64,000 nucleotides of DNA. It comes from Acanthamoeba castellanii str. Neff. Its lineage: Eukaryota > Discosea > Longamoebia > Acanthamoebidae. The first letter of the stretch is position 1, and each line of letters begins with the position of its first letter. Under the pieces are notes generated by a model. That model was given only the letters and a program-made list of their open reading frames with translations, was not told the origin of the DNA and searched no databases. Shown here one piece after another: positions 14,901 through 36,514 of the stretch. Position numbers and translations under genes: made by a program. The stretch lies in contig NW_004457313.1 of NCBI RefSeq assembly GCF_000313135.1, positions 1,247,151-1,311,150 of the forward strand. The letters run 5' to 3'.

Positions 14901-17900
14901 CCGTCGCGGGCGACCATCATCTTGACGGCGACCTCGGTGCCGCGCCACTTGGCCCGGAATACCTCGCCGTAGCCGCCCGTGCCGAGGGTCTCGGCCATCT
15001 CGAGCTCGTCGGTGTTGATCTCCCACTCGTCGCGGGTCTGGCGCCGCTTGGCCATCACCACGAGCGCGATCGCCACGACGACGATCAGGAGCACCACGAG
15101 CGCAGCCGCGGGGATGATCGAGGCGAGCGTGGCCACCATGACCGTGTCGTCCGATGCCGTCGTCTTCAGGGTGCTGACGTTGGTCTGGCAGTGGTCGCCG
15201 GTCCAGCCCTCCCCGCACTCGCACCGCTTCTCGTAGCACACGCCGCGGTCCGAGCACAGCGTGCCCTCGGCCGAAACGCAGTCGGCGATCGCGCTCACCT
15301 TCTCGCCGTTGCACGTCACGTTCGCCAACGCGAGCAGTATGCGCTGGCTGAGACCCGGCACCGTCGCGGCTTGCGCGATTCCGTTCCTGTTGGCGGTACG
15401 CAGGGCTTGGGACGATGACTGCGTCCACCAGATCCAGTCGACCACAGCCGCGGCCTTGATGCAATCGGTGGCACGGGTGGGCACCATGAACAAATCATAG
15501 AGCGTCACCGGGTAGCTTTGTTCTCCGCTTCCTGCACCAGCACCAAACGCGAGCGTGAGTGTGAGTGTGACACTACACACGATGACAGATGGAGTGGGGG
15601 TGGTGATCGGGTGTCGAACCATAGAGCGCGCCCTGGAAGAGGTGCTGGTCGGAGGTATCGGTGAAGTCCAGCATGGCCGATTGCACGGTGTAGTTCGAGG
15701 CTGTGACGTAGTTGCCGGCCGAGTTGAGCAGCGCCGCCATGCGCACGCTCTTGGTGGTGGCGATCGTCCCACTGGAGAGGGCCGACAGCGCGTAGGTGAC
15801 CGTGTTCAGGCGCGAGGCGATGGTCGACTCCGCGCCAGCGATGCTGATCGTCCGGTTGGCGATCGACTGGACGGGGTAGTTGGGCTGGTCCACCACGCCG
15901 ACCTGTTGGCCGTGTTTCGTGTCAACATCAGATACCTACACGCACAGGTGCGAAAGCAAGGGCCAACGTACGGTCGAGTTGAAGCTGGCGCTGGCGCTGG
16001 AGAGCGCGGTGGTGACAGCGCGGGTGAGCAGCGAGGGATCGGTGCCCACGACGACGGTGATCGGGCGGTTTGTCAGGAGGCCTGCGAACTGGGGGTTGAT
16101 GGCGACGATGCGCGGGTCGTTCCACACGTTCACCTCGTTCATGTAGATGGCGGCCCACAGCTCGAGCGTCAGGTTGAGTGGCGTAATGACGAAGCGAAGC
16201 TCGGGTATCTGTTGTCGATAGACCCAAAGATGAGCAGAGCGCGATGCGTGTCTTGTGTGTGTGTGTGGTGTGTGTGGTGTGTGTTGTGTGTGTGTGTGTG
16301 TGTGTGTTGTGCGGGAAACGCACGTTGTAGCAGGGGAACGCCGCGTAGCCAAGTACAGGAATGATGGTGACGCCCTCCACGTGGACCTGCTCGAGCGTAG
16401 CGCCGGTCGTCACCGCTGCAAAGTCGATCGCTCCTGCACCGATTCGATCTGTCAGACCGAGCTGCGCTCCAGGCCATGACTGTTACCCGTGTACCTTGGG
16501 AAATGTCGCGGACAACTGTCGGCACGTCGCTGGCGAAGTACTTCTGCGTGAAGGTGTTGGAGTTGTAGTTGCTCGCCAAGTCGACCAGGGCCGGTCTCGA
16601 TATGCCCTCGCCGATGACGTAGGCCGTGGTGAGGGCCTGCTCGTCGTCGCACTTGATGGTGCCTAGGACGTCGATGACCTTCTTCTTGTAGGCCACCGAA
16701 AGCGGGACCCAGCCCTGGGCCGCTGCGCGATCCACCGCGCGCTGGTTGATCTGCAGCCAGCTGAGGAACTGCACCAGCTCCTGCGTGATCGAGCAGTCCG
16801 CCGAGTCGCCTACGGCGCTCACCACGACAGTGGCCACGTAGCTCAGCGGCCACGACCCTTGGCCCTCCCCGTCGAAGGTGGGAATCAACAGACCACCTGC
16901 GCGCGAGAGTTAACTGCGGTTCTGGGGTTCGCGGCATACACGTTGTGGGGTGGTGGGTGGAGAGACCTGTACCGTCCTGCAGCGCCTCCTGAAAGTCCTC
17001 CAGCGCCACTTGAATGCTGTTAACGTTGGGCAGCACCGTCGCGCCGGCCTTGTTGATCATCCGGGCCATTCCCACCCTCAGCGCGGTGGCCGTCGCCAGA
17101 TCTGAGTAGGTAAGGCTGTACGGAGTATTCTGCAATGCAGAACGATCGAACGCGTGTCAGTACTCAGGCAAAGACTACCGTAATAATGAAATCATTACTA
17201 AACCGCCGAGGGCTCACCTGAACGAAGCGAATTCGGGTGGTGCTGTTGGTGGCGGAGAAGCCTCGGCCCTGGTCGAACGGCGGCAGACCGGAGAAGTCGT
17301 CGGCCAGGTCGAGTTGCTCGGCGAAGAGGGGGCTCAGGGCGCGCATTCCACGCTTGAAGGTCTGCGTGATGGTCTCGTTGTCGGACGACCCGTAGCACAG
17401 CACGATCGGCTCGTGGGGTAAGACGGTGCCGTCGTCGAACGGGTTGAGGCGGAGGATGGCCGGGTCGTCCCAGTGCGTAATGTTGCCGGTCCAGATTCGA
17501 CCCAACGTCTCCCCATCGAATATCTGCATTTTTTGACGCTCAAGTCAATCCAAGACTGACAACACACACTAACACGAACACAGAAGACATGCACGACACA
17601 CGATGGGCGTGCGGAAGAGCGGAGGAAGCGTACCAAGGGGGAGGCGAGGGTGATGTTGGGCAGGTTGTAGGTGTGGATGAGGCCCGAGGCGTAGAGGGGC
17701 ACCTGGAGCAGGCTCGAGTCGATGTAGGAGGAGTCTGCCAGACTGTCCAGCGCCGCGAAGTTGCTGTAGGCCACCTGGAGGGCGAAGATTACGATCTGGA
17801 AGTTGTCCGTTCCTGTGTAGGCCGCCGTCACCGTGTCCCGATGGTACTATTCCCCTCCCCCCACCGTAGTGAGTGGCTTTCGAACTTGGCTTCAGAAGCA

Positions 17901-18176
17901 GACGACGAAGATGGTGTGAGAGAGGACTCCGTACGGTGTAGCTGCTGCCCAGGTGACCAGTGCGCTGTAGAGCGAGTACTCGCCGACGCCGTAGAGCGAG
18001 ACATTGGCCTCGACACGGTGTTCTGGTATCCAAAGTTGGAATATGTAAAAGGGCCTTCCCCCAAAATGATACTTGCCAAGCACGGGTGCCAAAGAAGAGA
18101 GAAGCGAACCATGCAAGGTGAAGGCCAGGAAGGCTGAGATGAAGAGTAGGGCGAGCGCGGGCCTGAGGAAGCGCAT
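11924..18176 (-). CDS. receptor 1: tandem PstS-like ectodomain, TM, kinase, class III cyclase-like, kinase
   Basis: About 15 exons; from 17523 downward they are 17523-17218, 17129-16973, 16896-16495, 16448-16324, 16208-15972, 15902-15620, 15531-14861, 14767-14651, 14579-14421, 14331-14129, 14040-13073 and 12999-11924, all in phase. The joins between 18022 and about 17830 are uncertain. Signal peptide MRFLRPALALLFISAFLAF. Two PstS-type lobes: IFDGETLGRIWTGNITHWDD and AAIYMNEVNVWNDPRIVAIN. Then an EGF-like CECGEGWTGDHC, a membrane helix, TKL-type kinase 1 ([24 protein letters not shown]), a cyclase-like domain (VFSDITRAASLWE, GPVVNTAARI) and kinase 2 (GMGSYGMVYKG, HRDLKPSN, DFGFARI). Both kinases look active. 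The PstS ligand motif R-S-D-G-S-G-T is replaced by CYGSSDNET. Cyclase substrate residue (Lys/Glu) is Val. Paralogue of the gene at 20845. Probably a surface receptor; ligand unknown. Confidence 0.88.
13018..13067. repeat. (GTGTGC)n array in an intron
   Basis: Short GTGTGC/GTGC array on the plus strand inside the last intron of receptor 1, where the sense strand reads CACACG. Same unit as at 3936-4020 but opposite orientation to its gene. Confidence 0.85.
16255..16312. repeat. (GT)n low-complexity run in an intron
   Basis: GT-rich run broken by GGTGT units, filling most of an ectodomain intron of receptor 1 (sense strand AC-rich). Confidence 0.85.
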
Positions 18177-19126
18177 GGTGACTGCGCGAGTGGCCGTCGC
18201 GAAGTGTCTGGCGTTCAGGCGGTGGGTGGATGCGGAGAGCGAGTTGCGCCTTTGAGCGTGTGGTGGGTGAAGGTGTGAAGAAGACCAGGGCAATCGCGGC
18301 AATTTAAACCTGTCGTGTGGCAGAGGAGGCAACCCGAGGCGACGCCCGCCCCGACTAAAGTCGGAGAACAGCGATCTCCCATCTCTGTTTCTTCACTCCG
18401 CTCCGCAACGGGTGGTCACCAGTGTGCTGACTCCTGGTGGCTGGCGTCCTTCCCGGCTTGATCTCAGCTCGGTGGTCAAGTACGTCGGCACGACACCAAG
18501 AGCTCCAGCCTCCCTATTGGTGTGTTTCCTGCTTGCGCTATAAGCGCTGGTGAAACGGTGCATGTCAACCTTCCAAGTGGTTGTTACGTTGCAACATCAC
18601 GAATCAACCCGCCACGCTCCCCGAACAATGGCCCGAGCGAATGGCTCAAAATACGTATAATTGGCAACAAAAAAAGGAAATGTGTCAATGTGCAATGGAA
18701 CAGTGGCATAGTAACACATAATAACACATAAAAGGTAAAATTGCACTTCGCCAATAAAAGAGAAAGGACCGAGAAAGACTGAAAGAAGCGACCAACCATG
18801 CGTTTCATTGCAAGAACAAGCGAGAGCGGTACCTGGCGCTAGGCCACCCCAGAACCATTCGGCCATTTTCTTCGCAGCACCGACAAAGGAGCGTACGGGT
18901 GAGCTGGTCGCAAGGGAGAAGCTGGTTGGTGGGGAGGAAATCGAGTTACCGGGGGAGGTACCGGGTACCAGCTCAGCGATCCATCACAAGGGCGAGGGAC
19001 GGGGTGAGGGCAAAGCAGAGCGACCCGGCCGCTCTTTTATTACATGCAACGATGATCAAACAAAAGAGGAACCACCAACAGGCGCGCTGCTGGGACTCGA
19101 AAGGGCGAGAAAGCGTAGCTGTGGCC
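18177..19126. other. intergenic between receptor 1 and a four-helix gene
   Basis: Left part is the upstream region of receptor 1. A TATA-like GGTTTAAATT (minus strand, 18301-18310) lies about 125 bases before its start codon. The middle and right parts hold short open frames on both strands with no family resemblance and A-rich stretches (18665-18735). I see no RNA gene. Confidence 0.45.
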
Positions 19127-20844: not shown

Positions 20845-23800
20845 ATGGCGAAAGCTGTATGCTGGCTAGCGCTCACTTGTGTTCTCCTGTTTATCACTGG
20901 CCATGAAGGTTTTTACCTCCGCCATCACGTACCTAACTTTTCAGGCAGCGAAGAAATGCTCACTCTTCCCTTGCCCCACGCGCAGGATTGCGGCTCGCCG
21001 GCCACGGGTCGGACGGGCCATCGGACCTGTTGAAGGAGTGGGCCAAGACGTACCTCTATGTGCGCGACGACGTCAGGTTTCTCCTTCTTCCCTTTAATTT
21101 AGTTGCTGCCTACGTATTGCAGCTCACGGTTGGCTCTCGTGTCGTCACATGGCAGCATCCAGTACCAGTCCACCATCGTGACAAGGGCTTTGGCCGACTA
21201 TCAGCGCGGCACCGCCGTACGCCACTATCCCTACCCCGACATTCTCGATCGTTATCGTTTTTTTTTGTTTCTTTTTTCCCCTTTATCTGTCTCTTTTAAC
21301 GGTAAACCCCAAAGAACTTCCTGGCCAACGACCGCGCCGATGAAGTGGACTTCGGGCACTTGGTCCAGTTTCCACTGTTCGCCCAGCCGATGGTGGTCAG
21401 CTACTACGTGCCGGGGTTCAGCTACATCGGCCCCACCCTGGTCTCCGATTCCCTTCCCTTTTTTATGTCTGATTTTCACAACATTTTCTGATGGCCGCAT
21501 TATGACGTAGGTCCTCGACGGCGAGACGCTGGGGCTCATCTGGGCCGGGGAGATCACCCAATGGAACGACTCGCGCATCCAGGCCCTCAATACGCCCGTC
21601 ACACTGCCCAACTCGACCATCCTGCTGGGCTACAACGAAAACAATCGCCTGTCCTTCGCGCAGGTGTTCAAGGAGGCCTTGTCGCGCTTCAGTCCCACGT
21701 TTCGCGAGGCCCTGGCGGCGGCTAACGGCTCCTTCGACGGACTGCCGCCTGCCCTGGCCGGCAACGCTTTCGAGGTGGGCGAGGAGCCCAATCAGCGTAT
21801 GGACTGGCTCTCGAACACGCCCAACGCCATGACTTTTGCGCGCAAGGACGAAGCCGACAGATACGGCCTGCGCTACTTCTACATGATCAACAAGGCCGGG
21901 AACCTCGTGGAGCCGAGCGTGGATACATTGAAGGCCGCGATCTCCAGCTTTGCGAGCAACATAAGCGCTGGCCAGCTGTCCATCGACATCTCCGATGCGC
22001 CCGACGCCAACGCGTGGCCGCTGGCCTACTTGAACTACATCGCCTTTAACCGGTCCACCACTGATCTGGACTGTAGCACCGTCCAGGAGCTGCTGCGCTT
22101 CATCGCCTGGACCCTCGTGAACGAAGAGTACGTCGTCTCGTTTTAGTTCCTAATATGTAGTATACATCTATAGAAAAGATTGATAACATGACGTTCCATC
22201 GACGCAGAGCGTCTAACGTCATCGAAGAGACTTACTGGTGGACGTCAATCGACCCGAGCCTCCGCAAGAGAGTGCTGGATCTCTTCGGCCAGGTGCAGTG
22301 TAACAACGAATTGGCCGCCGAGACGTTGTACCTCATCGGCACGGGGCCGAACACGCCCATCTGGGCGACCTGGTCGGTTGAGTACTCGACGACGGAGGCC
22401 AGCTTCAAGTACTTCGCGTCGAGCTCGCAGCAGTCCAAGCAGCAGCTGGCCACCTTCGACGCCGACTTCGGCACGACGAACAACGGGTTGAAGCAAGAGG
22501 ACGACCGGAGCAAGCGCAGCTCCGACGACGTCACCCTCCTGCCTGCCAATGCCTATGCGCTCGTGCCCGGTACGCCGCCCTTGTGACGCTCACACCTGGC
22601 GCTGAGGTGCAGCATCGCTCATCTCCGCGTTGTTGTCTGGCTAGTCTATTTTATACCTGGCCTGACCGGACTGGTCCTTGACTTTGCCACCATCGCCGGG
22701 ATCTACATGGGGTTCGCTTGCTGCTCTGTGTGTCGTGTCACGTCGTGAGTGTCGTGTGTGCGGCGTACATGAAAAGATCGCCCGAGGATGCTGACATGTG
22801 TGTGGAGCAGGGAAGTGGTAATGTGGAACGACCCGAGGATCGTGGCACAAAACACGCCCGAGGTGGTAGCCATGCTGCCGGCAGAGGCCATTCGCGTTAT
22901 AATTCCGACCGCTTCGTCGGATGTCACGCTCCAGTTCACGACATTGCTCAACGCCACCGTGCCCGCGTTCGCCGATGCCGTGGGCGCCGGTTCCGTGGTC
23001 GACTTTCCAGTGGCGTCCAGCCGCGACACGGTGGTCGTCGACAACCAGGAAAGCATCCCCAACGCACTGGTCCTCTCAATCTACGGTTTCACCTTCCTCG
23101 AGCAGCCGGAGGCCCAGCTGGTACGTGCAGCGCCTCTTGACCATCATGACATGACGTGGTGCCAGGCCTGACCCACGTGGTGGCGGATGGGGAGCGCAGT
23201 TGCTGGATATGGGCCAGGCCAGTTTGCGCAAGCTGGACGGCTCTGTGGTGAAGCCCAGCCTTGCCACGGTCCAGTCCGCCGTGGCGGGCTACCTCGCAGC
23301 CGAACCCAACCCGACCTTCTCGAGCATCTTACTCAGCACGTCTCCCAGTCTTCCGCGCCTGCCACCATCATCACCGCCAGAGAGCAGAGTTCTGTGGCGA
23401 CCACCAGCTTGCCTGCGATGTATCCTGATTGTTTTGTGGTGTGGTACTCGACAGGCACAGGGAATGAGAGCTGGCCGCTGGTGACCTTCGGGTCGATCAT
23501 CTACCATAGCAGCGCAATGGAGCACTGCGACAAGGCGCAGGCCCTGGCCTCGTGGCTCTACTGGACCCAGACCAACATTCGAGCCAGCAGAGCCGCCCAG
23601 AAGTTCGTTCAATTCACCGCCCCGCGCCGGAGAGATATCGATGCTAATCATGACGATGATCATTTCACCAAACCCAGGCAAGGCTTCCTGGTCGCGTCGG
23701 AAGCTGATCCGTCGCTCCGGCGCCGCATGTTCAACCAGATGAAGGCCTTCACGTGCGGCGGCGCGCATATGAGCGCGCTCGCCGGCTGCATCAACGACGG

Positions 23801-26800
23801 GGACGTGTGCTCCGGCGGGCAGGGCACCTGCATCGAAGGCGGGTGCGTGTGCAACAGCGGGTGGACAGGCGAGTTCTGCGAGCGGGCGATCGACACGAGA
23901 TCGTCCGACACCACGGTCACCATCGTCCTTGGTTCGATTCCCTCCCCACGCTCCAGAGGCGTTGGGGACGCTGGCTTGGTAATGAGTGCCGTACTGACTG
24001 CCGTACCACGCCTACTGCAGCGGTGGTAATTCCCTTGGCCGTGCTCCTCCTGATCGTGGGCGCCTGTGTGGTGGTGGCGATCCTCTTGACCCGGAGAATG
24101 AACCGCCGACACGACGACTGGGAAATCGACTTCGACGAGCTCGAGGTCGGCGAGCTGCTGGGCTCGGGTACACCTCCTCCTGCATCTCTTCTACTTTAGC
24201 CGCTGGATTGGCATTCTCACGTCCCAATTGTGTCAACTGCGCGCGGTTTGTGGTTGCAGGCGGGTACGGAGAGGTGCGCAAGGCCATGTGGAAGGGCACC
24301 GAAGTGGCAGTCAAGGTCATCGCCGCCGAAAAGATCACGAAGGAGATGGCGTCGGGCTTCCAAGACGAAGTGCGCCTCCCCTATCCGAATATGAAGAATG
24401 ATTCACAATAGTGGCGCAATGATTGATAACTGATCGAACTGCGATTTGATCTCACAGGTGCGGGTGATGACGGCGTTGCGGCACCCGAACGTGGTGCTGT
24501 TCATGGCGGCCTGTACCAAGGCACCCAAGATGTGCATCGTCATGGAGCTCATGGCCCTCGGCTCGCTCTATGACGTGCGTCTGCCTGCCCATCGACTCAC
24601 ACATGGCGCATGCCCATGCTGACCTCTCTTTTGGCCACTTCAGTTGCTCCACAACGAGCTGGTCCCAGACATTCCGTTTGTGCTGAAGGGCAAGATGGCG
24701 TACCAGGCGGCCAAGGGCATGCACTTCCTGCACTCGTCGGGCATCGTGCACCGCGACCTCAAGTCCCTCAATCTCCTCCTTGACGCCAAGTGGAACGTCA
24801 AGGTGCAACCCTCTTGCTTCGCTCTTCGCTCTTCGCTCTTCTCTGCTTCGCTTTCGCTCTTTGCTCTGCTGTCCAATGCCACGACGTCAGCAACAACATT
24901 CCGCCCATGGCCTGAACAGGTGTCGGACTTTGGGTTGACCAAGCTGAAGGAGGACGTGGGTCGGGGAGCCAACAAGGACGCCCGCGGCACGCTCCACTGG
25001 ACCGCGCCCGAGGTGCTCAACGAATCCGAGGCCGTCGATTGGATCCTGGCCGACGTCTACTCCTTTGGTATCATCCTGTGGGAGCTCATCACCCGCGAGC
25101 AGCCCTACCTGGGCCTCAGGCACGCAATCCCATTCATTTTATTATTGTTCATTATTATTGAAAAAAGCTTGCTTATTTATTAACAATATTTCATGAGCGC
25201 AGCCCGGCGGCGGTGGCGGTGGCGGTCATCCGCGATGGCATCCGACCGCCGCTGCCGGACGAGGACGAGAACACGTGCCCGGCCGACTACCGAATGCTGA
25301 TCAGCAGCTGCTGGCACTCGGACCCGGTGATCCGCCCGACATTCCTCGAGATCATGACTCGCCTGTCCGCCATGCCCGGTGACTCGTCGTCGCGCCTGGG
25401 CTCCTCGAGTATGCACTCGAGCAGCTCGAGCGAGTCCTACAAGAGCGCGGCGCTGTCGTTGGCCGACAACGACGGCGGCTCGTCGTCATCGTCGGGCTCT
25501 CGGGGCTCGGCGCACCTGGCGGCCGTGACCGCCCCAACCGCCGTGCGCCCGCCCGAGGGCGAGGTGGCCATCGTCTTCACCGACATCACCCGCGCAGCCT
25601 CGCTCTGGGTCCACGACGCGGCGGCCATGCGCGACGCCACGATCGTGCACAACGCCACCCTGCGCGCGGCGCTGGCCCGACACCGCGGCTACGAGGCCCT
25701 GTTCCTGCGCGACCGCAACAGCGGCGCGGGCTCGTTCTGTATGGCCTTCTCACGCGCCGCCGACGCGCTGGCCTGGTGCCGCGATGTCCAGGTGGCCCTG
25801 CTCAAGGCCGACTGGCCCGAGGCGCTGCTCGAGCACCCCGGCGCCGCGGAGGAGTTGGGCGACGCCGACGACAGCCGGGTGCTGTACCGCGGGCTGCGGG
25901 TGCGCATGGGCATTCACTTTGGCGAGGTCACGCTCGTGCGCGATCCGACGACGCGGCGGGTCGAGTACATCGGACCGGTCATCAACACCGCCGCGCGCAT
26001 CACCGCAATGACCCACGGAGGCCAGATCGTGCTGAGCCACGCAGCCTTCCAGGAGCTTTCCAGCAGCGCCGATGGTGCTGCGTCGGAGCAGGCTCGGTCC
26101 TTGGTGTGCCTGGGCCGGTTCGAGATGGCCGACGCGTCGCACGATGGTACCCCCTATGGCGCCCACACTCTTGCCTTTGCCAATCAAGCTGCTCACGGGC
26201 GCTATCACACATCACACTTTCGTCGTCTGTGCGCAGAGTCAAAGCTGTACGAGGCCAGGGTCGAGGGCCTGGAGGGGCGCTTCTTCGGCGGTGTGACGTC
26301 GGACGGCGGCGCAAGCAGCAGCACTGGCGACGGCAGCAGCAACGGAGGGAACGGCAGCAGCAGCAGCAGCGGCGGTGGGCATGGTCATGGTCATCATCGA
26401 CTGATGCAGACAGGCGTGGGCGAGGGCCTGCACTTCGCCGAAGACGCCTTCCTCACCTCGGCCAACTTGTGCCGGTGGATCATCGACTACAACGAGATCC
26501 GCATAGGCGTGCAGGTGGGCCTCGGCTCCTACGGCGTGGTCTACCGCGGCACGTGGAAGGGCGTCGACGTGGCGGTGAAGCAGTTCATCAAGCAGAAGCT
26601 GGACGAGCGGCGCATGCTCGAGTTCCGCGCCGAGATGGCCATGCTCTCGGAGCTGCACCACCCCAACATCGTGCTCTTCATCGGCGCCTGCGTCAAGTCG
26701 CCCAACCTGTGCATCGTGACCGAGTTCATGACGCAGGGCAGCCTGCGGGACCTGCTCGCCAACCCGACGGTCAAGCTGACGTGGCGTCAGAAGATGCGGA

Positions 26801-27285
26801 TGCTGCGGGGCGCGGCGCTGGGTATCAACTACCTCCACTCGCTGCACCCGGTGATCGTGCACCGCGACCTCAAGCCGGCCAACCTGCTGGTCGACGAGGG
26901 CGGCAACGTGAAGGTGGCCGACTTCGGGTTCGCGCGCATCAAGGAGGAGAATGCGACCATGACCCGCTGCGGCACGCCCTGCTGGACGGCGCCGGAGGTC
27001 ATTCGCGGGGAGAAGTACGACGAGCGGGCCGACGTGTTCTCGTTCGGGGTGATCATGTGGGAGGTGCTCACGCGCAAGCAGCCCTTCGCCGGGCGCAACT
27101 TCATGGGCGTCTCGCTCGGCGTGCTCGAGGGCCAGCGCCCGGCCATCCCCGGCGACTGCCCGGCCGAGTTCCGCAAGCTGATGAAGAAGTGCTGGCACGC
27201 CAAGGCCGACAAGCGGCCGACCATGGACGTCGTACTCGCCTACCTCGACCGGGAGGCCACCGGCAACTCCGACCCTGCCGTGTAA
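20845..27285 (+). CDS. receptor 2: tandem PstS-like ectodomain, TM, kinase, class III cyclase-like, kinase
   Basis: Eighteen exons summing to 1,681 codons: 20845-20908, 20986-21076, 21156-21216, 21315-21440, 21511-22127, 22208-22569, 22645-22711, 22811-23120, 23200-23419, 23455-23602, 23678-23931, 24021-24167, 24260-24369, 24458-24574, 24644-24802, 24920-25119, 25203-26146, 26237-27285. Signal peptide KAVCWLALTCVLLFITG; lobe 1 LDGETLGLIWAGEITQWND; lobe 2 GIYMGEVVMWNDPRIVAQN; EGF-like CVCNSGWTGEFC; membrane helix VVIPLAVLLLIVGACVVVAI. Kinase 1 about 815-1090, cyclase-like about 1138-1330 (VFTDITRAASLW, GPVINTAARI), kinase 2 about 1415-1675 (GLGSYGVVYRG, HRDLKPAN, DFGFARI). The intron at 25120 starts GC, not GT. 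The exons near 23200-23419 are less certain. Head-to-head paralogue of receptor 1, and tail-to-tail with receptor 3 across 106 bases. Confidence 0.9.
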
Positions 27286-27391
27286 CTTTGATTACCAAAA
27301 CGCCAACAAAGAGAATCTATGCGCATTCGGCGCTTTACTGCGGTGGTGGTGGTAGTAGTAGAATACAAAGGGCTGGAGAGTGAATAGCGAC

Positions 27392-30300
27392 TTAGACCAT
27401 CTCTTCAGCCTTGGGGTTGTCGAGCCATTCCTCGATCGTCTTGCACAGCTCATCGGCCGCGGGGCGCTTGTGGGGCTTGCGGTGCCAGCAGCGGCTCATG
27501 AGCGCCGCGTAGGACTTGGGAATGTTCGAGGGCACAGCCGGGCGCTTGCCCTCGAGCACCTCGAGGCTGATCTTGGCAAAGTTCTCCCCGGCGAACGGCA
27601 TCTTCCGCGTCGCCACCTCCCACATGAGAATCGAAAGACTGCACATCCGTCAGAACTAAGACATGACGCGTGTCGTGCGGGTGTGTGTGAGGTGTGTGTG
27701 GTGTGTGTGCGTGCGTGCGTGTGTGTATAGTATGTATGTGTGTGGAGTTGGAAAGCACCTGTAGATGTCGGCCTTTTCGGTGTAGTGCTCACGTCGCACG
27801 ACCTCGGGGGCGATCCAGGCGGGCGTCCCGCACTTGGTCATGGTGACGTTCTCCTCCTTGATCCGCGCAAAGCCAAAGTCGGCGATCTTGGCGTTCCAGG
27901 ACTCGTCGACGAGCACGTTGGACGACTTGAGGTCGCGGTGCATGATCGGCGGCGACTGGGAGTGGAGGTACGACAGGCCCAGCACGATGCCGTGCAGCAC
28001 CCGGAGCCGCGTGGGCCACGGGAACTTGACCGAGTGGTTGGTCAGCACGTCGCGCAGCGAGCCCTTGGGGATCCACTCGGTGATGATGCACATGTTGGGC
28101 GACCGCACGCAGGCGCCGATGAACAGCACCACGTTGGGGTGGCGCAGCTCGGCCATCATCGCGGCCTCCTCGCGGAAGCGCAGCATGGTGTCCTCGTCGA
28201 GCCGCTGCTTGATGAACCGCTTGACCGCCACCTCGATGCCCTTCCACCGGGCCTTCGACACAACGCCGTACGAGCCCTGGCCCACATCGACCTTGGTCAT
28301 CGCCAGCTCCTCGTACGGTATAATCCACCGACACGCGTTCGAGCTGCCGATGTACATGTCCGACATGGGCAACAGGGTGCGCAGCGGTCGGCCGGTGATG
28401 TCGGTCGACGAGCCTGATGTGGTGCCGTGGCCCGACGAAGTCGTGGCGTGCCCGCCCACCAACCCGCCGACGCGCTCCTCGAGGCCGCTCACGCGCATCT
28501 CGAAGATCTCCACGTCGGTGGACGACCCGCCATTCTTGCCGTTGACCTCCAGCACGCCCAGGCTAACGTAGCGGCCGCTGGGCGGTTTCCCGCTGTCGGC
28601 GCTGCTCGCGCCGTCGGTCGCGGCGGTCACTTCGCGCGAGACCAGAACGTGGCCGCCCTCGGCGTGCATGGCGAGCTCGGTGGCGACCTGCACCGCCGGG
28701 CCGGAGAACTCGAAGCGGCCCGACTTGGGGTCGCGTACGCGACTGGTGTAGCCCAGGTGGATGCCCATGCGCACCCGCAGGCCGCGGTGGATCACGTGGT
28801 CCCGGGGTCCACCGATCTCCTCCTGGGCCAGGTCGTGCTTGATCAGGTCCAGCGGCCAGTCCACCTTGAGCAACTCCCGCTGCACTTCATCGCTCCTGCG
28901 CGCCACCAACATTGGTCAGTGATGCTGTGGTGTGCGGTGTGCGGTGTGCGTGTGTGCGGTGTGCGTGTGTGAGTAAGCGCGTTTGTGGGTACCAGCGCAC
29001 TGCGTCGATGGCTCGGGAGAAGACGACGCAGAAGTAGCCCTCGCCGCCGGCGTGATTCTTGAGGAAGACCGACTCGTAGCCGCGGTGATGAGTCATGAGC
29101 TGTCGCACGAGCTGATTGTGCTGCGACATGGCCTGGCGCATGGCCGATGGGTTGGCTTCCCAGAGCGGCGCCGCGTTGGCGATGTCGCTCATCACCACCG
29201 TCAGGTGCTCGCCAGCCGGCGGCGATAGAACCGTCTGGTGGGCACCACCGGCAGCGGCGGCCTCCTTTGACGCGCTCGACGAATTGGAGGAGGAATTGAA
29301 GCCGGACCGGTGCACGCCGTAGGTGGCCGACGAGCTGCTGGTGCCGGTGCCCGTCACGTCGTAGCCGCCATGCGACAGCATTGTGGCCAGGCTGGACATG
29401 ACGTCGAGAAAAGGCGGGCGCATGGTAGGGTCCTGGTGCCAGCACTGGGCCATGAGCTGCTCGTAGTCGACGTGGCGCTCCTGGGCGAGATCGACGTCGG
29501 GCCGCATGCCGTCGCGGATGACGCCCACGGCCACGGCCGCCGGGGTGAGTCCGCAGTAGGGCTGCTCGCGAGTGAGCAGCTCCCACATGATGATGCCAAA
29601 GCTGAACACGTCGGCCTGCATGTAGTCCACGTCCACGCTGTCGCCCAGAACCTCCGGAGCGCTCCAATGAACAGTGCCTGTGAAAATTCGTGTGAGCTGG
29701 CATGTGTGCGTGTGCGTGTGGTGTGTGTGTTGTTGTTGGCTTCAAGCAAACTTGTGCTCACCTTCAACTTCATCACCGCCGGCTCGCTTGAGGTCGGCGC
29801 GGAACTTGGTCAAGCCGAAGTCGCTGACCTTGAGGTTCCACTTGGCGTCGAGGAGGAGGTTGAGGGACTTGAGGTCGCGGTGCACAATGCCCGACGAGTG
29901 TAGGAAGTGCATGCCCTTGGCCGCCTGGTACGCCATCTTGAGGCAGAGCGAGAGAGGAATGGAAGGCACCAGCTCGTTGTGCAACAGCTGCGAATCAAAC
30001 AAAGGAAGAAAGGTGAGTTCGGCTGGCTGTGAGAGAGAGCTGCAGCGAACGACGGAGAGATTGGTGAAACGTACGTCGTAGAGGGAGCCGAGAGACATGA
30101 GCTCCATGACGATGCACATCTGGGGAGGCTTGGTGCAGGCTGCCATGAACAGCACCACGTTGGGATGGCGCAACGCCGTCATCACATGCACCTCCTGCCG
30201 TGTCGACGGAAGACTGATGAGATTGGCGGTACCACCCAGGAGTTGCGAGCGTCAGGTGTTGCTGACCTGTTTGAAATTCTCGCAGGCCACCTTGCCCGCC

Positions 30301-32558
30301 GACTGTGCGCTCATGATCTTCACCGCCACATCCGTGCCCTTCCACACGGCCCGATAGACCTCACCGAACCCACCTGCATGTTGGGTTAAAGGTGAAGAGG
30401 AGTGGTCAGACAGCGCTACATGCGCCACACAAACAAGTTTCGGAGTTATACCCGCGCCCAAGAGCGGCCCCATCTCGAGTTCGGTGATGTCGATCTCCCA
30501 GGCGTCGTGGCCGGACCGGCCCGCGCGGATGCGGTAAGCCACCACCGCGGCCACTATGCAAAGAGCGATAAGCGCCAGCAGCGGCAGCGTGACGCCCAGC
30601 GCGATGCCCAGCGACTCGCTCGTCGATGAACCCGAGTCCGTGGCGTTGACAGTGGCGCACAGTGAACCCTCTGTACCCTCGACCGTGCAGTGACACACGC
30701 CCGCCAGACAGTACCCGTTGCCGCTGCATAGGGTCCCATCGCTGGCCGTGCAGGTGAGCCGGCTGGCCGAGGTGGTGGTGATGCGCCCACCCTCGACCGC
30801 GGTGATGTTCTGCGCAAAGCCCGCGAAGAGCATCGAATTGAACGAGTAGCCGGTCTGCTCGACGTCGATCGCATTGTCGCGCACCATGCCGTAGTCGTCG
30901 CCGCCGATGATGACGAACCACTCGAACGACGACACGGTGTAGAGGGCCTCGGTGTCGAGCAGCTGCCACACGCCGGCCGACACCTCGACCCAGGCGTCCA
31001 CCACCCGCGAGCCCACCGTCATGTTGGGATTGAAAGTGAACCGAAGGCCACCCACCTGCAGGAACTTGCCCGCGCCGCTGTTGACGTCGAGGTTGGTCGC
31101 CGTCGCCAGCGACACGCCGTTCTCGAGCGCCTGCCACACGTACTCGCCCTTGAGCTTGTAGGTGTAGTGCATGGACGTGCCGAAGGGGAACGCGGTCTGC
31201 TCCTGGCCCAGGGTGATCGCGCCTTTGCTGATGCCCGCACGCACCGAGCCGCCGTTGTTGAAGGCGATCTGGGTCTTGCCCAGCTGCTTGAAGAGGTCGC
31301 CGGTCCAGTCCCCGATCGTGCACTCGGCGAACAGGCAGTTCTGCTGGAAGGCCAGGTCGACCGCCGAGTAGCCGATTACGGACGTGTACTTGGCCTCGAT
31401 CTGCGCGTACTCATCGATGAGCGCGGTCTGCAGCGTCGGGTCAGGCGCCACGCTGTCGTCCATCAGTACAGTGTCGCCCGAGTAAGCCGTGATCACGCCG
31501 TTGTCGTCGAACGTGACATCGAGCACGCCGATCAGCTGGCCGAAGGTACCGCTCGACACGACCAGCACGTTCTGCAGCCACCGGGTCTGGTAGACCATCG
31601 GGTAGGGGCCAACCGGACCCATCGACGCCGCGGCGTTGGCCTGAAGCTGCCCGGGGACGATCAGTATGTCGATGCCCGGAACAGCGGCCAGCACCTGCTC
31701 GGCAGTGGCGTTGCTGCTCACCGACGCCACGATCTTGTTGACGCCCCGGTTCTGCAGCGAGGCGACGGCCACCAGCAGCGCGTCGGCCTCTTCGGTCGAG
31801 TTGAGGCTCTGAGAGTAGGCCACGAGCGAGTTCAGATTCTCGGCGAGCGTGGCGGCGAAGCCCACCTTCTCGTCACCGCCACCGGTGCCGTGGCCCGCGA
31901 AGGTCTTGATCGCAAAGGCGGAGATGACGGTGCCGTTGGCCCGGGAGTCATCGGCGAAGCCCTCCAGGTTGCTCACCACGAACTCGACGTCCGACCCGGC
32001 GTGCTGCATGAACTCGACCACGTTGGGCACCAGCGCGACAAAGTCGAGGATCTGCCAGTGGACGAAGTCGTAGCCCAGCTGGTCAAAGTACGAAGCGATG
32101 AGCGACGGGCCGAATAGGAAGTAAAAGAGCGAAGTCTTGAGCACGTTGCCGGCGTCGATCAGTAGTGAGTTGTTGGGCGCCCGGGCGCGGACGCCGTCGA
32201 TGACGGTCTTCATCCGCGCCGCGCCTCCGTAGCAGGCGAGGCCCTGGGCGCTCACGTAGGAGGAGGCGTTGACCGGCTTACACGGGTTGGAGTACTGGTC
32301 CATCGCCGTGAGAGCCGAGCTCGTGTCCGACGTGTGGACCAGCGTCAGGTTGAATAGCCCCGATACACCTACATCCGCCGCCCCCCCCCCCAATACCAAG
32401 GTCAGTCAAATAAAAAGCAGACAGGAATTACAAGCTGGAACGAAGATCAGGTTCCGAGCGAGGTTAGTGGGCGTGGTACCATTGACGAAGAAGCCGCAGA
32501 TCAGAGTAGAGAACAACACCAGAGGAAGCACGACGGCCAGGGGAGCAGACGGCTTCAT
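27392..32558 (-). CDS. receptor 3: catalytically dead 5'-nucleotidase ectodomain, TM, kinase, pseudo-cyclase, kinase
   Basis: Eight exons (32558-32480, 32368-30452, 30373-30267, 30194-30075, 29987-29762, 29677-28993, 28895-27759, 27638-27392) sum to 1,505 codons. Signal peptide [19 protein letters not shown]. Residues about 30-540 have the two-domain 5'-nucleotidase (CD73/UshA) fold: [39 protein letters not shown], then [25 protein letters not shown] and [13 protein letters not shown]. Metal ligands are mostly lost (His38 to Ser43, Asp85 to Asn101, Asn-His 117/118 to Ile-Leu, both late His gone), while pocket residues remain. Then an EGF-like motif, helix [19 protein letters not shown], kinase 1 ([15 protein letters not shown]), a cyclase remnant (about 979 on; [10 protein letters not shown] lacks the Asn and Arg) and kinase 2 ([26 protein letters not shown]). 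Likely a nucleotide or nucleoside sensor. Confidence 0.9.
27681..27747. repeat. GT-rich run in an intron
   Basis: GTGTGTG/GTGC low-complexity stretch in the last intron of receptor 3. A similar GTGTGCGGT run lies at 28918-28975 in the preceding intron, which interrupts the cyclase-like domain. Confidence 0.85.
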
Positions 32559-33262: not shown

Positions 33263-34405
33263 TCAGTTCCAGGCATACCAGCCGCCGTTGGCAGACTCGG
33301 TGCAGCGGGGCGAGGGCGACGAGTTGTCCTCCAGGGCGAGATAGTAGATCAGGTCGTCGAAGACCACGTCGTCGGGACGCAGCACCACCGACACACTGCT
33401 GCCGTTGCGGCTGTCGGGCTTGGTGCGGCCCACCTCGCTGGCGTTGAGGTCCTGCGTGACGACGGTGATCTTGATCTTGTTCACGGTGTCGGCGTACCGG
33501 CTCTGGTCGACCAGAACAGCGGCCGCGTAGGGGTCCCACAGGCTGTAGGTGTTGAAGACGGAGCCCATCTGGGTCTGCAGGGTGCGCAGCAGCGAGTAGA
33601 CCCAGGCGGCCTCGCTCGTGTACTGGTTGACGCCGAGGCGGTCAAGATAGGTCTGGTTGACGATCAGCTGGCCCGTGGCGTCGAGCGGCACGAGGACCAG
33701 GCTGACGCCGGACGTGGCCACGGCGGCCAGGGCATCGGGGTCGCCGAGCGCGTTGTACTCGGCGTAGGTGTTGGGCACGTTGGTGAAGATGTTGCCGCCG
33801 ACGTAGACGGCGCCGCCCGAGAAGACCACACGGCCGATGCGGACCTTGGCCCACGGGTGTGCGCTCAGCAGGTCGGCCACGTTGGTGGCCGGACCCAGCG
33901 CGAGGATGTCCACCTTGTCGCGGGTCGAGTTGAGCACCTGCACCATGAGGTCCACGGCGCCCGGTGCGTTCGGGTTGTAGTAGCGGCCCGGGCCGGCCTT
34001 GGGGAAACAGTGGGCGAGGCCCACGAGGGTGTCTGCCCACTGCCTGCCGCCGGGAGCGTTGGGAATGGTCTTGGCGTAGGTGCAGCCGTAGATGTTGTGC
34101 TTGATGTCGTAGAGCGCGTAGCCGCCGCCCCAGGTCACGGGGATGTCGTTGCGGCCCATGAAGGCAAGCATGTTGAAGATGTTGGTGAGGCCGGAGGAGA
34201 GCGAGGCCCAGCCGGTGCCGACGACGGTGATGGCCTTGATGTCGATATCGGTCCGCTTGAGCAGCCACAGGATGGCGATCGCATCGTCGGTGTTGGCGTC
34301 GGTATCGATGATGACCTGCTTCTTCTTCTGGCTCGAGGTGGCGTCCACGGCGAGGGCGCACACCACCAAGGCCAGCGCGGCCACGATGCAGATGTTGACC
34401 TTCAT
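33263..34405 (-). CDS. secreted inosine/uridine-preferring-type nucleoside hydrolase
   Basis: Single exon, 380 residues. Signal peptide MKVNICIVAALALVVCALAV, then the family calcium/ribose motif VIIDTDANTDDAIAIL (Asp-x-Asp-x-x-x-Asp-Asp intact; the usual Gly is Asn). Further family motifs: DILALGPATNVADLL, VVFSGGAVYVGGN, EYNALGDPDALAAV and LWDPYAAAVL. In the last one the usual catalytic His of the His-Asp pair is Trp, while the Asp is kept. The enzyme would split extracellular or vacuolar nucleosides into base and ribose for purine or pyrimidine salvage; base preference cannot be read. Lack of introns is unusual among its neighbours and may point to later acquisition or retroposition. It lies upstream of and parallel to receptor 3, whose ectodomain is nucleotidase-derived. 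Confidence 0.9.
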   Translation of the reverse strand: MKVNICIVAALALVVCALAVDATSSQKKKQVIIDTDANTDDAIAILWLLKRTDIDIKAITVVGTGWASLSSGLTNIFNMLAFMGRNDIPVTWGGGYALYDIKHNIYGCTYAKTIPNAPGGRQWADTLVGLAHCFPKAGPGRYYNPNAPGAVDLMVQVLNSTRDKVDILALGPATNVADLLSAHPWAKVRIGRVVFSGGAVYVGGNIFTNVPNTYAEYNALGDPDALAAVATSGVSLVLVPLDATGQLIVNQTYLDRLGVNQYTSEAAWVYSLLRTLQTQMGSVFNTYSLWDPYAAAVLVDQSRYADTVNKIKITVVTQDLNASEVGRTKPDSRNGSSVSVVLRPDDVVFDDLIYYLALEDNSSPSPRCTESANGGWYAWN

Positions 34406-34721
34406 GGTGAGGTCGGCGTAGCAGTACAGAGATGGTGTATGTGAAGTAGTGAGGTGGTGTTGTATGCGTACAGAGTGGTCGGTGATGGAGAGTAAGTTTG
34501 GCGTGAGCGCCCATTTATGTGCCGCCCCGTCCCATTCCCAAGGACAACGGGCACGAACGAGCGCACCGTGCGCCCTGCCGTCCGCCCGCAAAGCGCTGGT
34601 CTCAAAATGGCTGCCTATCGGAAAGAAGTACAACGACTCATGAGAGATTGGTTGCACGTTGCAGAGTTTGCTAAAAATCGGCCGAAACGAATCGGCGGGG
34701 TGCGGGTAGGGGGGCTGGCGC
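34406..34721. other. intergenic, promoter side of the nucleoside hydrolase
   Basis: About 315 bases between two minus-strand genes. Contains the TATA-like box listed separately and the 3' flank of the hydroxyproline dehydratase gene. Nothing else is seen. Confidence 0.5.
34511..34520 (-). promoter_or_regulatory. TATA-like element of the nucleoside hydrolase gene
   Basis: The minus strand reads ACATAAATGG about 108 bases before the start codon at 34405, a plausible distance for a TATA box plus a short leader. Single weak motif; no transcript data. Confidence 0.35.
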
Positions 34722-36514
34722 TCACAGTATGAAGCCGTGGCGCAGGGGGTCGGCCGGGTCGAGTAGGAATTCGCTGCGGCCGGTGACGAACGCTGTAGGA
34801 AGCGCCGTGAACCCTAGCGTCAGAGAGAAGGCTTGAGAAGGGCTCTATGGGTGGGGTTCGTACCGGTGCCGGAGACGATGGGTATGATGGCTTCATGCGG
34901 GCCGAAGCGGGTGGTGCTCGCCACGATTCCGGTGAAGCTGGTGCCGATGATGCTTTCGATCACCGCCGGTGCCCCAGGCTGAATCTGATTCCTAGCATGA
35001 AGCAGTGCCAGCCGGCCGCTCACGCCAGTCCCTGCGGCCGGGCTTTCAGTGTTGTGCGGCTCGGCGATTTTTTTCTACGTACCGGTGGGGGATCGGTCGA
35101 TCTCGCCGTCCGCGAAGACACACACGTTGCGGCTGTGGTGTTGCGCGGTGTGGGGCGGGCTCGTGATGATCGTCCCTGCCAGAAGAGGTCAGTTATCGGT
35201 CAGCTTGAACCAACGCTTGTTCAAACTTGTTCGTTTACCATAAAGAAAGCCCAGATCCGCTTCGAAAGGGTGGACGAGCTCAACCTGCTTGATGGCCGCG
35301 TGCTTGATGACCACCCCAATTTGCTTCAATTTGTCGCACTCCTGCCGTACTCACACGCCGCATTGAGTATCGCAGATGCCCACCAACCGGAACAAACTCC
35401 ACTCCAACCCCGCACCTGAGGTACGATAGAGGTTGGAGGCAGGCCCAGCTCGTCTGTGCCGACGTACGCGTAGAAGGCACCACCAAAGCCGATGTCCACC
35501 TTCACCGTGTCCTTGCCTGAGACGGTGCGGTCAGCCCACACGGCCGTTGCCGGGGGAAGGGGCATGCTTCCTACCTAGCAGTGGTACGAAGGACGAGGAC
35601 TTGAGCGGGACGTCCAGCTTATAGGCGAACGAGGGCACGTTGGCGAAGCTTACGCGCTCCACCGTGCGACCGTCCTGTAGGGCCGAGACTCAGCTGATGA
35701 GTTTTTGCCGCTGTGCTGCGCTGGCGTGTGAGCGAGAAGAAGCTCACCTGGGCAAAGTGCGCTTGCGCGGTCACGAGGCCCGCGGGAGTGTCGATCCTGA
35801 GCTCGGCGCGGTTGTTGGCCGCATCGCTGTCAGCGGGGAAGCCAGACTCCACCAGCAGCTTGGTCATGGCAATGATGCCGTGCCCACACATCTGTCACGT
35901 GCGCGGCGCCAACTTGGTCAGTCATCGGCGCCTCAAAAACGCAACAACGATGCGAGTCATGCACACGTGCTCAACTTACCGAACTGTAGCCCTCGTTGTG
36001 GAGGAACAGAACGCCCACGTGAGCGGTGGGCGAGTGCGGCGCGAAGAGCAAGCACCCGTACATATCCCTGCACTGGACTGGTTAGCCAAGCGAATTGAAG
36101 CACAACGAAGTGAGCGAGAAGAGCAGTTGTATACCGGTGGCCGCGGGGCTCCCACATGAGGGCGGTGCGAAGGTGGTCGCAGTGCCGCTGCATGTAGCGG
36201 CGACGGGCCAGCATGTCGCCTTCGAGGTCGGGAGGCACCTCCCGCTCCATGCCGCCCACCACCACCCTCAGAGGCTCGCCCTCCGTATGCATATCCACCA
36301 CACGCACCACACCAGGCTCGGTCGTAGAGGCTGCTGCAGCTTCGCCAGTATTGCGCCCCCACCACCTTCTGCCTGCCCCCGCCTCCAGCCCCTTCAGCCC
36401 CGCCAGCGCCACCGAAGCTCGCGAGGCGTCTGGCGCGGCTGCGCCACTGAACAAGCGACGCCCCACCACCTTTGAACAGCCCACCCGCCCTGTCGTGGTC
36501 TGGCGCACCAGCAT
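34722..36514 (-). CDS. L3HYPDH: trans-3-hydroxy-L-proline dehydratase (proline racemase family)
   Basis: About nine exons whose joins keep phase: the first is 36514-36135, and the last ends at the stop at 34722. Seen in order: [48 protein letters not shown] with the first active-site Cys (MCGH), [70 protein letters not shown] and a final [12 protein letters not shown]. The second active-site position is Thr (DRSPT), not Cys. In this family Cys/Thr marks dehydration of trans-3-hydroxy-L-proline, whereas Cys/Cys marks racemases. The first about 25 residues ([10 protein letters not shown]) resemble a mitochondrial presequence. Likely catabolic role in the use of prey or collagen-like protein (inference). 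Confidence 0.88.

What the first reader, a model, noticed from the sequence alone, without database searches (positions are those of the whole stretch)
30452..32558. Receptor with a catalytically dead ecto-5'-nucleotidase as its sensor domain
The ectodomain of receptor 3 follows the two-domain CD73/UshA fold closely, including [12 protein letters not shown] and the GGD-aromatic-x-M loop. Comparing with the known CD73 ligands, only the first Asp (Asp36, here Asp41) of the two-metal site is kept. His38 is Ser, Asp85 is Asn, Asn117/His118 are Ile/Leu, His220 is Ser and His243 is Gly. The nucleoside-clamp residues stay: the Phe of FLQVGG, an aromatic (Tyr for Phe500), and the Asn and Arg of NGGSVR. 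So catalysis is lost and the pocket kept. Linked to kinase-cyclase-kinase, this predicts an extracellular purine (AMP, adenosine or like) receptor. I know of no description of one.
Basis: partly seen in the sequence, partly recalled or inferred. Interest (0 to 1): 0.93.

Follow-up and report, generated by a model that had tools for sequence, protein, structure and literature searches.

The report
Dead nucleotidase turned cell-surface receptor
An amoeba has turned an enzyme that trims extracellular nucleotides into the sensor of a cell-surface receptor: the cutting site is gone, the nucleoside-holding pocket is largely kept, and a gene for a nucleoside-breaking enzyme sits next door, which together suggest a form of purine sensing unlike that of animals.

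Summary

New here: (1) It is one of 12 family genes in this genome, all without the metal ligands wherever sequence covers them; 9 carry kinases, 3 a RasGAP domain. (2) Three of the 12 lie 0.7-0.9 kb from a nucleoside hydrolase gene (10 loci genome-wide; 0.016 adjacent pairs expected), each with the WD motif of purine-specific (IAG) enzymes. (3) Cedratvirus carries a copy that groups inside the amoeba family. (4) A neighbouring receptor has a PstS-like ectodomain, so this class does use bacterial binding folds as sensors. (5) Receptor 3's cyclase lacks key residues and is probably dead.

Ligand binding is inferred, not shown. The receptor architecture was published in 2013 and 2015; my searches of open-access papers listed no description of the nucleotidase-derived sensor.

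The parts
27392..32558 (-). Receptor 3 gene: exons 32558-32432, 32368-30452, 30373-30267, 30194-30075, 29987-29762, 29677-28993, 28895-27759, 27638-27392; 1521 aa
   Evidence: Spliced model with 7 GT..AG introns and intact frame
32432..32558 (-). Exon 1: start codon and hydrophobic leader ([24 protein letters not shown]...), probable signal peptide
   Evidence: Sequence; signal peptide judged by eye, no predictor run
30753..32366 (-). Pseudo-5'-nucleotidase ectodomain, protein residues 44-581 (all in exon 2)
30882..31379 (-). PF02872 5_nucleotid_C domain (substrate-binding half), residues 373-538
   Evidence: E 6.1e-24; coordinates
32319..32327 (-). Former metal site: D57 (=D36) kept, S59 (=H38) lost
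32145..32147 (-). N117 of this protein (= catalytic D85 of CD73), lost metal bridge
31716..31718 (-). S260 (= H220 of CD73), lost metal ligand
31332..31334 (-). L388 (= R354 of CD73, which contacts phosphate), lost
31254..31256 (-). N414 (= N390, ribose contact), kept
31239..31241 (-). R419 (= R395, ribose and phosphate contact), kept in this protein
31182..31184 (-). F438 (= F417, base stacking), kept
30918..30920 (-). W526 (= F500, base stacking), aromatic kept
30897..30899 (-). D533 (= D506, ribose contact), kept
30651..30752 (-). EGF-like stalk ([22 protein letters not shown]...)
   Evidence: EGF_2 weak, E 0.19, below cut-off; Cys pattern invariant or nearly so in the alignment of 10 family members
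30528..30611 (-). Single transmembrane helix, residues 629-656
   Evidence: Hydrophobic segment by eye, no predictor run
29388..30476 (-). Kinase domain 1 (residues 674-929), VAVK, HRD and DFG present
   Evidence: PF07714; motifs
28613..29210 (-). Class III cyclase-like domain (989-1155), probably inactive: [10 protein letters not shown] where receptor 1 has GPVVNTAARI and receptor 2 GPVINTAARI
   Evidence: PF00211 E 3e-9; alignment
27440..28294 (-). Kinase domain 2 (residues 1262-1506), VAVK, HRD and DFG present
   Evidence: PF00069; motifs
33266..34405 (-). Adjacent gene: IAG-type nucleoside hydrolase, probably secreted (380 aa; DTDANTDD and SLWDP motifs), 707 bp upstream of the receptor ATG on the same strand
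   Evidence: PF01156 E 6e-45; coordinates; WD aligned with IAG-NH 4i70; leader by eye

Best explanation
Receptor 3 is a transmembrane receptor whose sensor is an ecto-5'-nucleotidase that has lost catalysis. Proposed mechanism: an extracellular purine nucleoside (adenosine, inosine or guanosine) binds the C-terminal domain, with the base stacked between F438 and W526 and the ribose held by N414, R419 and D533. Binding changes the angle between the two domains, as substrate does in CD73 and UshA (recalled); the EGF-like stalk and single TM helix pass this on to kinase 1 and then kinase 2. The cyclase-like domain most likely acts only as a spacer or dimer element. The neighbouring gene's product, probably a secreted IAG-type nucleoside hydrolase, would destroy the ligand and reset the signal, or salvage it. 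Shown by computation: gene structure, fold, loss of the metal site, conserved pocket residues, family membership, hydrolase adjacency, RasGAP-linked members, viral copy. Inferred: ligand identity, domain rotation as the switch, signal direction, role of the hydrolase.
For: Among the 12 family members of this genome: D85 kept in 0 of 10 with a residue at that column (the other two read N), H220 in 0 of 11, no His aligned at 243 in any, R354 in 0 of 12; but N390 in 11 of 12, aromatic at 417 in 10 of 12, aromatic at 500 in 12 of 12, D506 in 11 of 12. Enzyme-conserved columns are kept at 0.91 in the C-domain and 0.47 in the N-domain. In CD73 the kept residues contact ribose and base, and the lost ones metal (recalled) and phosphate (passages). 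Nucleoside hydrolase genes lie 684-905 bp from 3 of 12 receptors, in three arrangements; 0.016 expected, and 0 of 400,000 simulations gave 3. All three have SLWDP; its WD aligns with IAG-NH 4i70, where 6zk1 and 4kpn have HD. The same ectodomain is attached to RasGAP in 3 members, as expected of a portable sensor. A sibling receptor in the window has a PstS-like ectodomain (E 4e-13). Relatives outside this assembly (P0002 95%, P0003 56%, P0004 53%, P0006 48%) keep open frames.
Against: No binding or activity data. Pocket residues are no more conserved than other enzyme-conserved C-domain positions, so fold conservation alone could explain them. R395 is Arg in only 4 of the 10 members with a residue there (some at piece junctions); F417 is Leu in L005 and L006; L008 lost both N390 and D506. 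R354 is not universal even among the enzymes used (7 of 12 have Arg), so its loss is weak evidence. For nine of 12 receptors no adjacent hydrolase was found, and L031, a hydrolase not next to a receptor, also has SLWDP. The three pairs may be duplicates of one ancestral pair, which inflates the significance. The hydrolases beside L005 and L006 have Phe at the first Asp of the DTD motif; their activity is untested.
Confidence: 0.6

Rival explanations
1. The ectodomain is a fold-only scaffold: the nucleotidase fold was co-opted as a stable extracellular domain that binds a protein, glycan or another small molecule at a different surface, and the pocket residues persist because they support the C-domain fold.
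For: C-domain conserved as a whole (0.91 of enzyme-conserved columns), not only at the pocket; N-domain eroded; L008 lost N390 and D506.
Against: The two clamp positions stay aromatic in 10 and 12 of 12 members; nucleoside hydrolase adjacency has no explanation under this reading.
Confidence: 0.25
2. It binds a nucleotide (AMP, NAD or a related molecule) without metal and senses that instead of a nucleoside.
For: R419 (= R395, contacts phosphate and ribose) is kept in receptor 3; among the full-length two-domain hits, the NAD nucleotidase NadN has one of the lowest rmsd values (3.6 A over 496 residues).
Against: N117, H118, N245 and R354 equivalents are lost; R395 is Arg in only 4 of 10 members; the hydrolase family next door acts on nucleosides, not nucleotides (family knowledge).
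Confidence: 0.1
3. It is still an enzyme, using a rebuilt metal site or a different chemistry.
For: D57 (= D36) is kept, and the loops that replaced the active site (VSSNATA, VP.QLQAN) are conserved within one subclade.
Against: H38, D85, N117, H220 and H243 are all absent; the ectodomain has only five His, none at a metal position; substitutions differ between members.
Confidence: 0.03
4. The hydrolase adjacency is a neutral relic of duplicated gene pairs and says nothing about the ligand.
For: L005 and L006 are in one receptor subclade and their hydrolases are 55-82% identical by piece.
Against: Receptor 3 and its hydrolase are far from the other two pairs (38-42% for the receptors; 31-39% by piece for the hydrolases), yet the genes are still adjacent, in three different arrangements.
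Confidence: 0.25

Closest known systems
Amoebozoan kinase-cyclase-kinase receptors (67 nucleotidyl cyclases in A. castellanii, PMC4053784; 66 of 67 there and 43 in Physarum, PMC4758236; passages seen)
   Same: Extracellular domain, single TM helix, cyclase flanked by two kinases
   Different: The passages seen do not say what the ectodomains are; here it is a dead 5'-nucleotidase, the cyclase is probably inactive, and three relatives carry RasGAP instead
CD73 / UshA / Thermus 5'-nucleotidase (PF00149 + PF02872)
   Same: Two-domain fold over the full length, C-domain sequence, nucleoside pocket
   Different: Two-metal site lost, phosphate contacts mostly lost, membrane-anchored signalling protein instead of enzyme
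Cedratvirus '5'-nucleotidase/apyrase' / serine-threonine kinase (P0021, P0022)
   Same: Same ectodomain, EGF, TM and two kinases; metal site also lost; sister to amoeba gene L004 (100/100)
   Different: First kinase has HGD in place of HRD and the cyclase region is strongly degenerate; the public name 'nucleotidase/apyrase' is misleading
Inosine-adenosine-guanosine nucleoside hydrolase (IAG-NH, e.g. 4i70)
   Same: The adjacent gene product matches it and shares the WD motif
   Different: Leader-like N-terminus; best overall PDB match is another nucleoside hydrolase (4kpn); only 3 of 10 PF01156 loci in the genome adjoin a family receptor
Animal adenosine receptors (P1 GPCRs; recalled)
   Same: Proposed ligand class
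   Different: No 7-TM domain; single-pass kinase receptor, unrelated sensor
Plexins (recalled)
   Same: Single-pass receptor ending in a Ras-family GAP domain, like the three RasGAP-linked relatives
   Different: Ligand and ectodomain are unrelated

Membership tests
Ecto-5'-nucleotidase (CD73/UshA) as an enzyme | Two-domain fold | tested here: met
Ecto-5'-nucleotidase (CD73/UshA) as an enzyme | PF02872 C-terminal domain | tested here: met
   E 6e-24, above cut-off
Ecto-5'-nucleotidase (CD73/UshA) as an enzyme | PF00149 metallophosphatase domain detectable | tested here: not met
   Not listed at E up to 1 (filters drop most matches above 0.1)
Ecto-5'-nucleotidase (CD73/UshA) as an enzyme | Two-metal ligands D36, H38, D85, N117, H220, H243 | tested here: not met
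   Only D36 kept
Ecto-5'-nucleotidase (CD73/UshA) as an enzyme | Nucleotide hydrolysis | not testable with these tools
   Needs purified protein
Amoebozoan kinase-cyclase-kinase receptor | Ectodomain, one TM, kinase-cyclase-kinase order | tested here: met
   Pfam order and TM in one 1521-aa model
Amoebozoan kinase-cyclase-kinase receptor | Catalytically competent class III cyclase | tested here: not met
   Transition-state Asn and Arg positions are Gln and Glu, while receptors 1 and 2 keep N and R (canonical residues recalled). The second metal Asp is Glu, but it is also Glu in receptor 1 and Ala in receptor 2, so that position does not set receptor 3 apart
Purine nucleoside receptor (functional class) | Nucleoside-contact residues of the CD73 pocket present | tested here: met
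   N414, R419, F438, W526, D533
Purine nucleoside receptor (functional class) | Binds nucleoside and signals | not testable with these tools
   Needs binding and kinase assays
Purine-specific nucleoside hydrolase (neighbour) | PF01156, Asp cluster, WD motif of IAG-NH | tested here: met
   E 6e-45; alignment. Activity not tested

The most novel reading that the evidence does not exclude
Acanthamoeba has a purinergic signalling system without GPCRs: at least 12 receptors made from ecto-5'-nucleotidases read extracellular purine nucleosides and feed two outputs (dual kinases and RasGAP). Secreted IAG-type nucleoside hydrolases, encoded next to several of them, terminate the signal, as phosphodiesterase does for cAMP in Dictyostelium. 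Cedratvirus has taken one such receptor from its host, presumably to rewire host purine or nutrient signalling during infection.
Probability: 0.35. Interest if true: 0.93.

Novelty: new variant of a known kind. Interest (0 to 1): 0.78.

Why it matters
Dozens of amoeba kinase-cyclase-kinase receptors are known, but the passages I read assign none of them a ligand. This one, with its hydrolase neighbour, gives a concrete, cheap-to-test ligand hypothesis. If right, it shows an ectoenzyme becoming the receptor for its own former product, and a separate origin of extracellular purine sensing outside GPCRs. It also gives a new meaning to viral genes annotated as '5'-nucleotidase/apyrase'. The RasGAP-linked relatives would tie nucleoside sensing directly to Ras, which a RasGAP links to macropinocytosis in Dictyostelium (PMC4374526, title and start of abstract in a listing only).

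Tried and rejected
Rejected: (a) That receptor 3 is a lone case: and follow-ups give 12 family members. (b) That C124, C79 and C189 encode active nucleotidases, my first reading: they lack the metal ligands wherever the exon pieces cover them. (c) That the genome has no active PF02872 enzyme at all: C44:261k keeps catalytic motifs (GNHEFDFG, GGHDH) and C221:68k keeps GHDH, in a different subfamily; C124:853k was not resolved. (d) Linkage to adenosine deaminase or ENT transporters: their few matches lie on contigs without a family receptor; the CD39 search found nothing but rang in no control genome either, so it says nothing. (e) Viral relatives in IMG/VR: none confirmed. In the phage collection 47 records matched; of the 10 listed, 9 matched only the kinases and one the ectodomain region (24% identity, E 2e-13, Microcystis phage). 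(f) Pfam on five exon pieces of receptors 1 and 2: 4 gave no hit and the fifth an EGF-like match, although a sequence comparison with solved structures found PstS for one of the four. (g) Literature: the listings of searches showed no description of a nucleotidase-derived receptor; only open-access papers are held, listings are capped, and the supplement of PMC4053784 was not readable.

Not run: docking or co-folding with ligand, residue-level superposition (model coordinates are not exported), a SoxB control for pocket conservation, dN/dS, signal-peptide or TM predictors.

Full report
What is there. On the minus strand a single gene runs from the ATG at 32558 to the stop at 27392. It has eight exons, seven GT..AG introns of 63-120 bp and an intact frame of 1521 codons. 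Pfam finds, in order, 5_nucleotid_C (373-538), a kinase (674-929), a weak adenylate/guanylate cyclase domain (989-1155, E 3e-9) and a second kinase (1262-1506). Exon 1 supplies a hydrophobic leader; exon 2 holds the whole ectodomain, an EGF-like cysteine cluster and one TM helix (leader and TM judged by eye). The whole genome is held as G000 (38.4 Mb, 250 contigs; window = C207:1247151-1311150).

The catalytic site is gone. On CD73 numbering the protein keeps D36 and replaces H38 by S, D85 by N, N117 by I, H118 by L and H220 by S; the loop with H243 and N245 is shortened. In the 14 receptor-type rows of that alignment, D85, N117 and H220 are replaced in every row that has a residue there, no row has His at 38 or 243, and H118 is His only in L005, L006 and L007. 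PF00149 is not listed. The whole ectodomain has five His, none at a metal position.

The pocket. A review (PMC12586806) and a research paper (PMC7508162) on CD73 (passages read) put ribose contacts at D506, N390, R354 and R395, base stacking at F417 and F500, and phosphate contacts at N117, H118, N245, R354 and R395. The true equivalents here are F438 and W526, with N414, R419 and D533 for N390, R395 and D506. Over the 12 family members of this genome: N390 in 11 of 12, aromatic at 417 in 10 of 12 (Leu in L005 and L006), aromatic at 500 in 12 of 12, D506 in 11 of 12, R395 in 4 of the 10 with a residue there (some at piece junctions), R354 in 0 of 12. L008 is the outlier, with D at 390 and L at 506.

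A background test used 12 enzymes and 12 receptors. Enzymes: human CD73 and 11 of the PF02872 proteins; left out were, among others, P0009, which itself lacks H220 and H243, the fragment P0007, and P0013. Receptors: 8 of this genome's 12 plus P0003, P0004, P0006 and P0021; left out were near-duplicates P0002 and P0022, P0005 (identical to the C80 exon) and the four intron-rich members. Of 57 enzyme-conserved columns, receptors keep on average 0.91 in the C-domain (19 columns) and 0.47 in the N-domain (37 columns). So the substrate-binding half is kept and the catalytic half eroded; but pocket columns are not better kept than the rest of the C-domain, and R354 is Arg in only 7 of the 12 enzymes, so its loss alone says little.

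A family, not an oddity. Searches give 12 genes with this dead ectodomain in G000; all lack the metal ligands wherever the exon pieces cover them. Nine carry the receptor kinases (receptor 3, L002-L008 and C189). A cyclase-like domain was found by tblastn in five of these nine (receptor 3, C80, C64, C234, C189); in the other four it was not detected. Three (C124 twice, C79) have the ectodomain, EGF and TM followed by a RasGAP domain: PF00616 E 7.5e-8 in the first copy (one of four pieces submitted; the other three gave no Pfam hit) with weak neurofibromin and SynGAP matches (1e-5 to 2e-3), homologous exons in the other two, and PF00616 hits at these places in the genome (C124:946221-947057, C124:952353-952734, C79:523465-523828). 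A CD73 query (P0010) finds only these receptors in the genome (12 match rows); PF02872 finds in addition C44:261k, which looks catalytically intact but of another subfamily, C221:68k, which keeps GHDH, and C124:853k, unresolved. In a tree of 18 rows the 13 receptors form one clade apart from 5 enzymes (100/100; midpoint root; C189, C79, both C124 genes, P0002 and P0005 not included), so catalysis was probably lost once. Relatives outside this assembly keep open frames (P0002 95%, P0003 56%, P0004 53%, P0006 48% to receptor 3; P0003 is 73% to C80 and P0006 81% to C64).

A viral copy. Cedratvirus P0021 and P0022 (1406 and 1408 aa) share the ectodomain, EGF, TM and two kinases, and group with amoeba gene L004 (100/100), inside the receptor family; transfer from host to virus is the simplest reading. 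Their metal site is also gone. Kinase 1 has HGD in place of HRD and the cyclase region is degenerate. PMC4053784 already notes that giant viruses have this architecture (passage).

The neighbour. PF01156 gives 18 rows, which I group into 10 loci; C152 and C200 are below the curated cut-off, C200 is confirmed by 51-56% identity to the window's hydrolase, C152 is not. Three loci are next to family receptors: window 33266-34405 (same strand, upstream of receptor 3, 707 bp), C226:30234-31180 (same strand, downstream of L006, 684 bp) and C94 near 494k (divergent from L005, 905 bp between matched regions). The other seven showed no family receptor or receptor kinase in the 3-5 kb fetched on each side. 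Expected adjacent pairs by gene order: 0.016; P(3 or more) about 6e-7; 0 of 400,000 simulations reached 3 and 26 reached 2. The pairs are not fully independent: L005 and L006 share a subclade and their hydrolases are 55-82% identical by piece. For two independent pairs P is about 1e-4. The hydrolases of the window and of C94 have leader-like N-termini (by eye). All three carry SLWDP, and so does L031, which is not next to a receptor. The WD aligns with IAG-NH 4i70, where 6zk1 and 4kpn have HD. The hydrolases beside L005 and L006 have Phe for the first Asp of DTD; their activity is open.

The receptor class uses bacterial binding folds. Receptor 2 in the same window (plus strand, about 21-27 kb) has an exon (21511-22143) related to PstS phosphate-binding proteins (1pc3 E 4.4e-13). 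This makes a small-molecule role for receptor 3's ectodomain more plausible.

Output. Both kinases keep VAVK, HRD and DFG. The cyclase-like domain has [10 protein letters not shown] where receptor 1 has GPVVNTAARI and receptor 2 GPVINTAARI, so the transition-state Asn and Arg are absent (canonical positions recalled). The second metal Asp is Glu here, but also Glu in receptor 1 and Ala in receptor 2, so that position does not set receptor 3 apart and the whole class may be weak cyclases. Receptor 3 probably signals through its kinases.

Mechanism. I favour a purine-nucleoside receptor: the ligand sits in the C-domain pocket, changes the domain angle, and the change is passed through stalk and TM helix to the kinases; the secreted hydrolase removes the ligand. 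Steps shown: anatomy, fold, loss of metal site, pocket residues, adjacency. Steps inferred: binding, switch, direction, role of the hydrolase. Confidence 0.6 for nucleoside sensing; about 0.97 that this is a catalytically dead 5'-nucleotidase used as a receptor ectodomain.

Novelty. The receptor architecture is published (PMC4053784 and PMC4758236, passages). The listings of searches showed no paper on the nucleotidase-derived sensor, the hydrolase pairing or the RasGAP-linked relatives; they cover open-access papers only, are capped, and supplements were not readable.

Noticed in passing
window 20900-27300 (+), exon 21511-22143: Receptor 2, another EGF-TM-kinase-cyclase-kinase gene, has a PstS-like phosphate-binding ectodomain (1pc3 E 4.4e-13) that Pfam misses on single exons.
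   Followed up: partly
window about 11948-18300 (-): Receptor 1, a third kinase-cyclase-kinase gene of the same class; its ectodomain was not identified.
   Followed up: partly
L023 / L035 (C124:942-953k) and L024 / L036 (C79:519-524k): Three single-pass receptors with a dead-nucleotidase ectodomain and a cytosolic RasGAP domain.
   Followed up: yes
P0021, P0022 (Cedratvirus): Giant-virus copy of the receptor, publicly named 5'-nucleotidase/apyrase or serine/threonine kinase, with the metal site lost; sister to amoeba L004.
   Followed up: yes
L006 and L007 ectodomains; hydrolase gene in L021: Frame breaks inside otherwise well-conserved frames; assembly error or decayed genes cannot be told apart here.
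   Followed up: no
window 29210-28613 (-): The cyclase-like domains of receptor 3, C80 and C64 depart from the N..R motif kept by receptors 1 and 2 and C234 (C64 keeps the N, not the R): probable pseudo-cyclases.
   Followed up: partly
window about 34700-36500 (-): Gene upstream of the hydrolase reads like a proline racemase or hydroxyproline epimerase (MCGHG motif, by eye, untested).
   Followed up: no
G000:C226:34851-35270: A metallophosphatase-domain hit lies a few kb beyond the receptor-hydrolase pair of L006.
   Followed up: no
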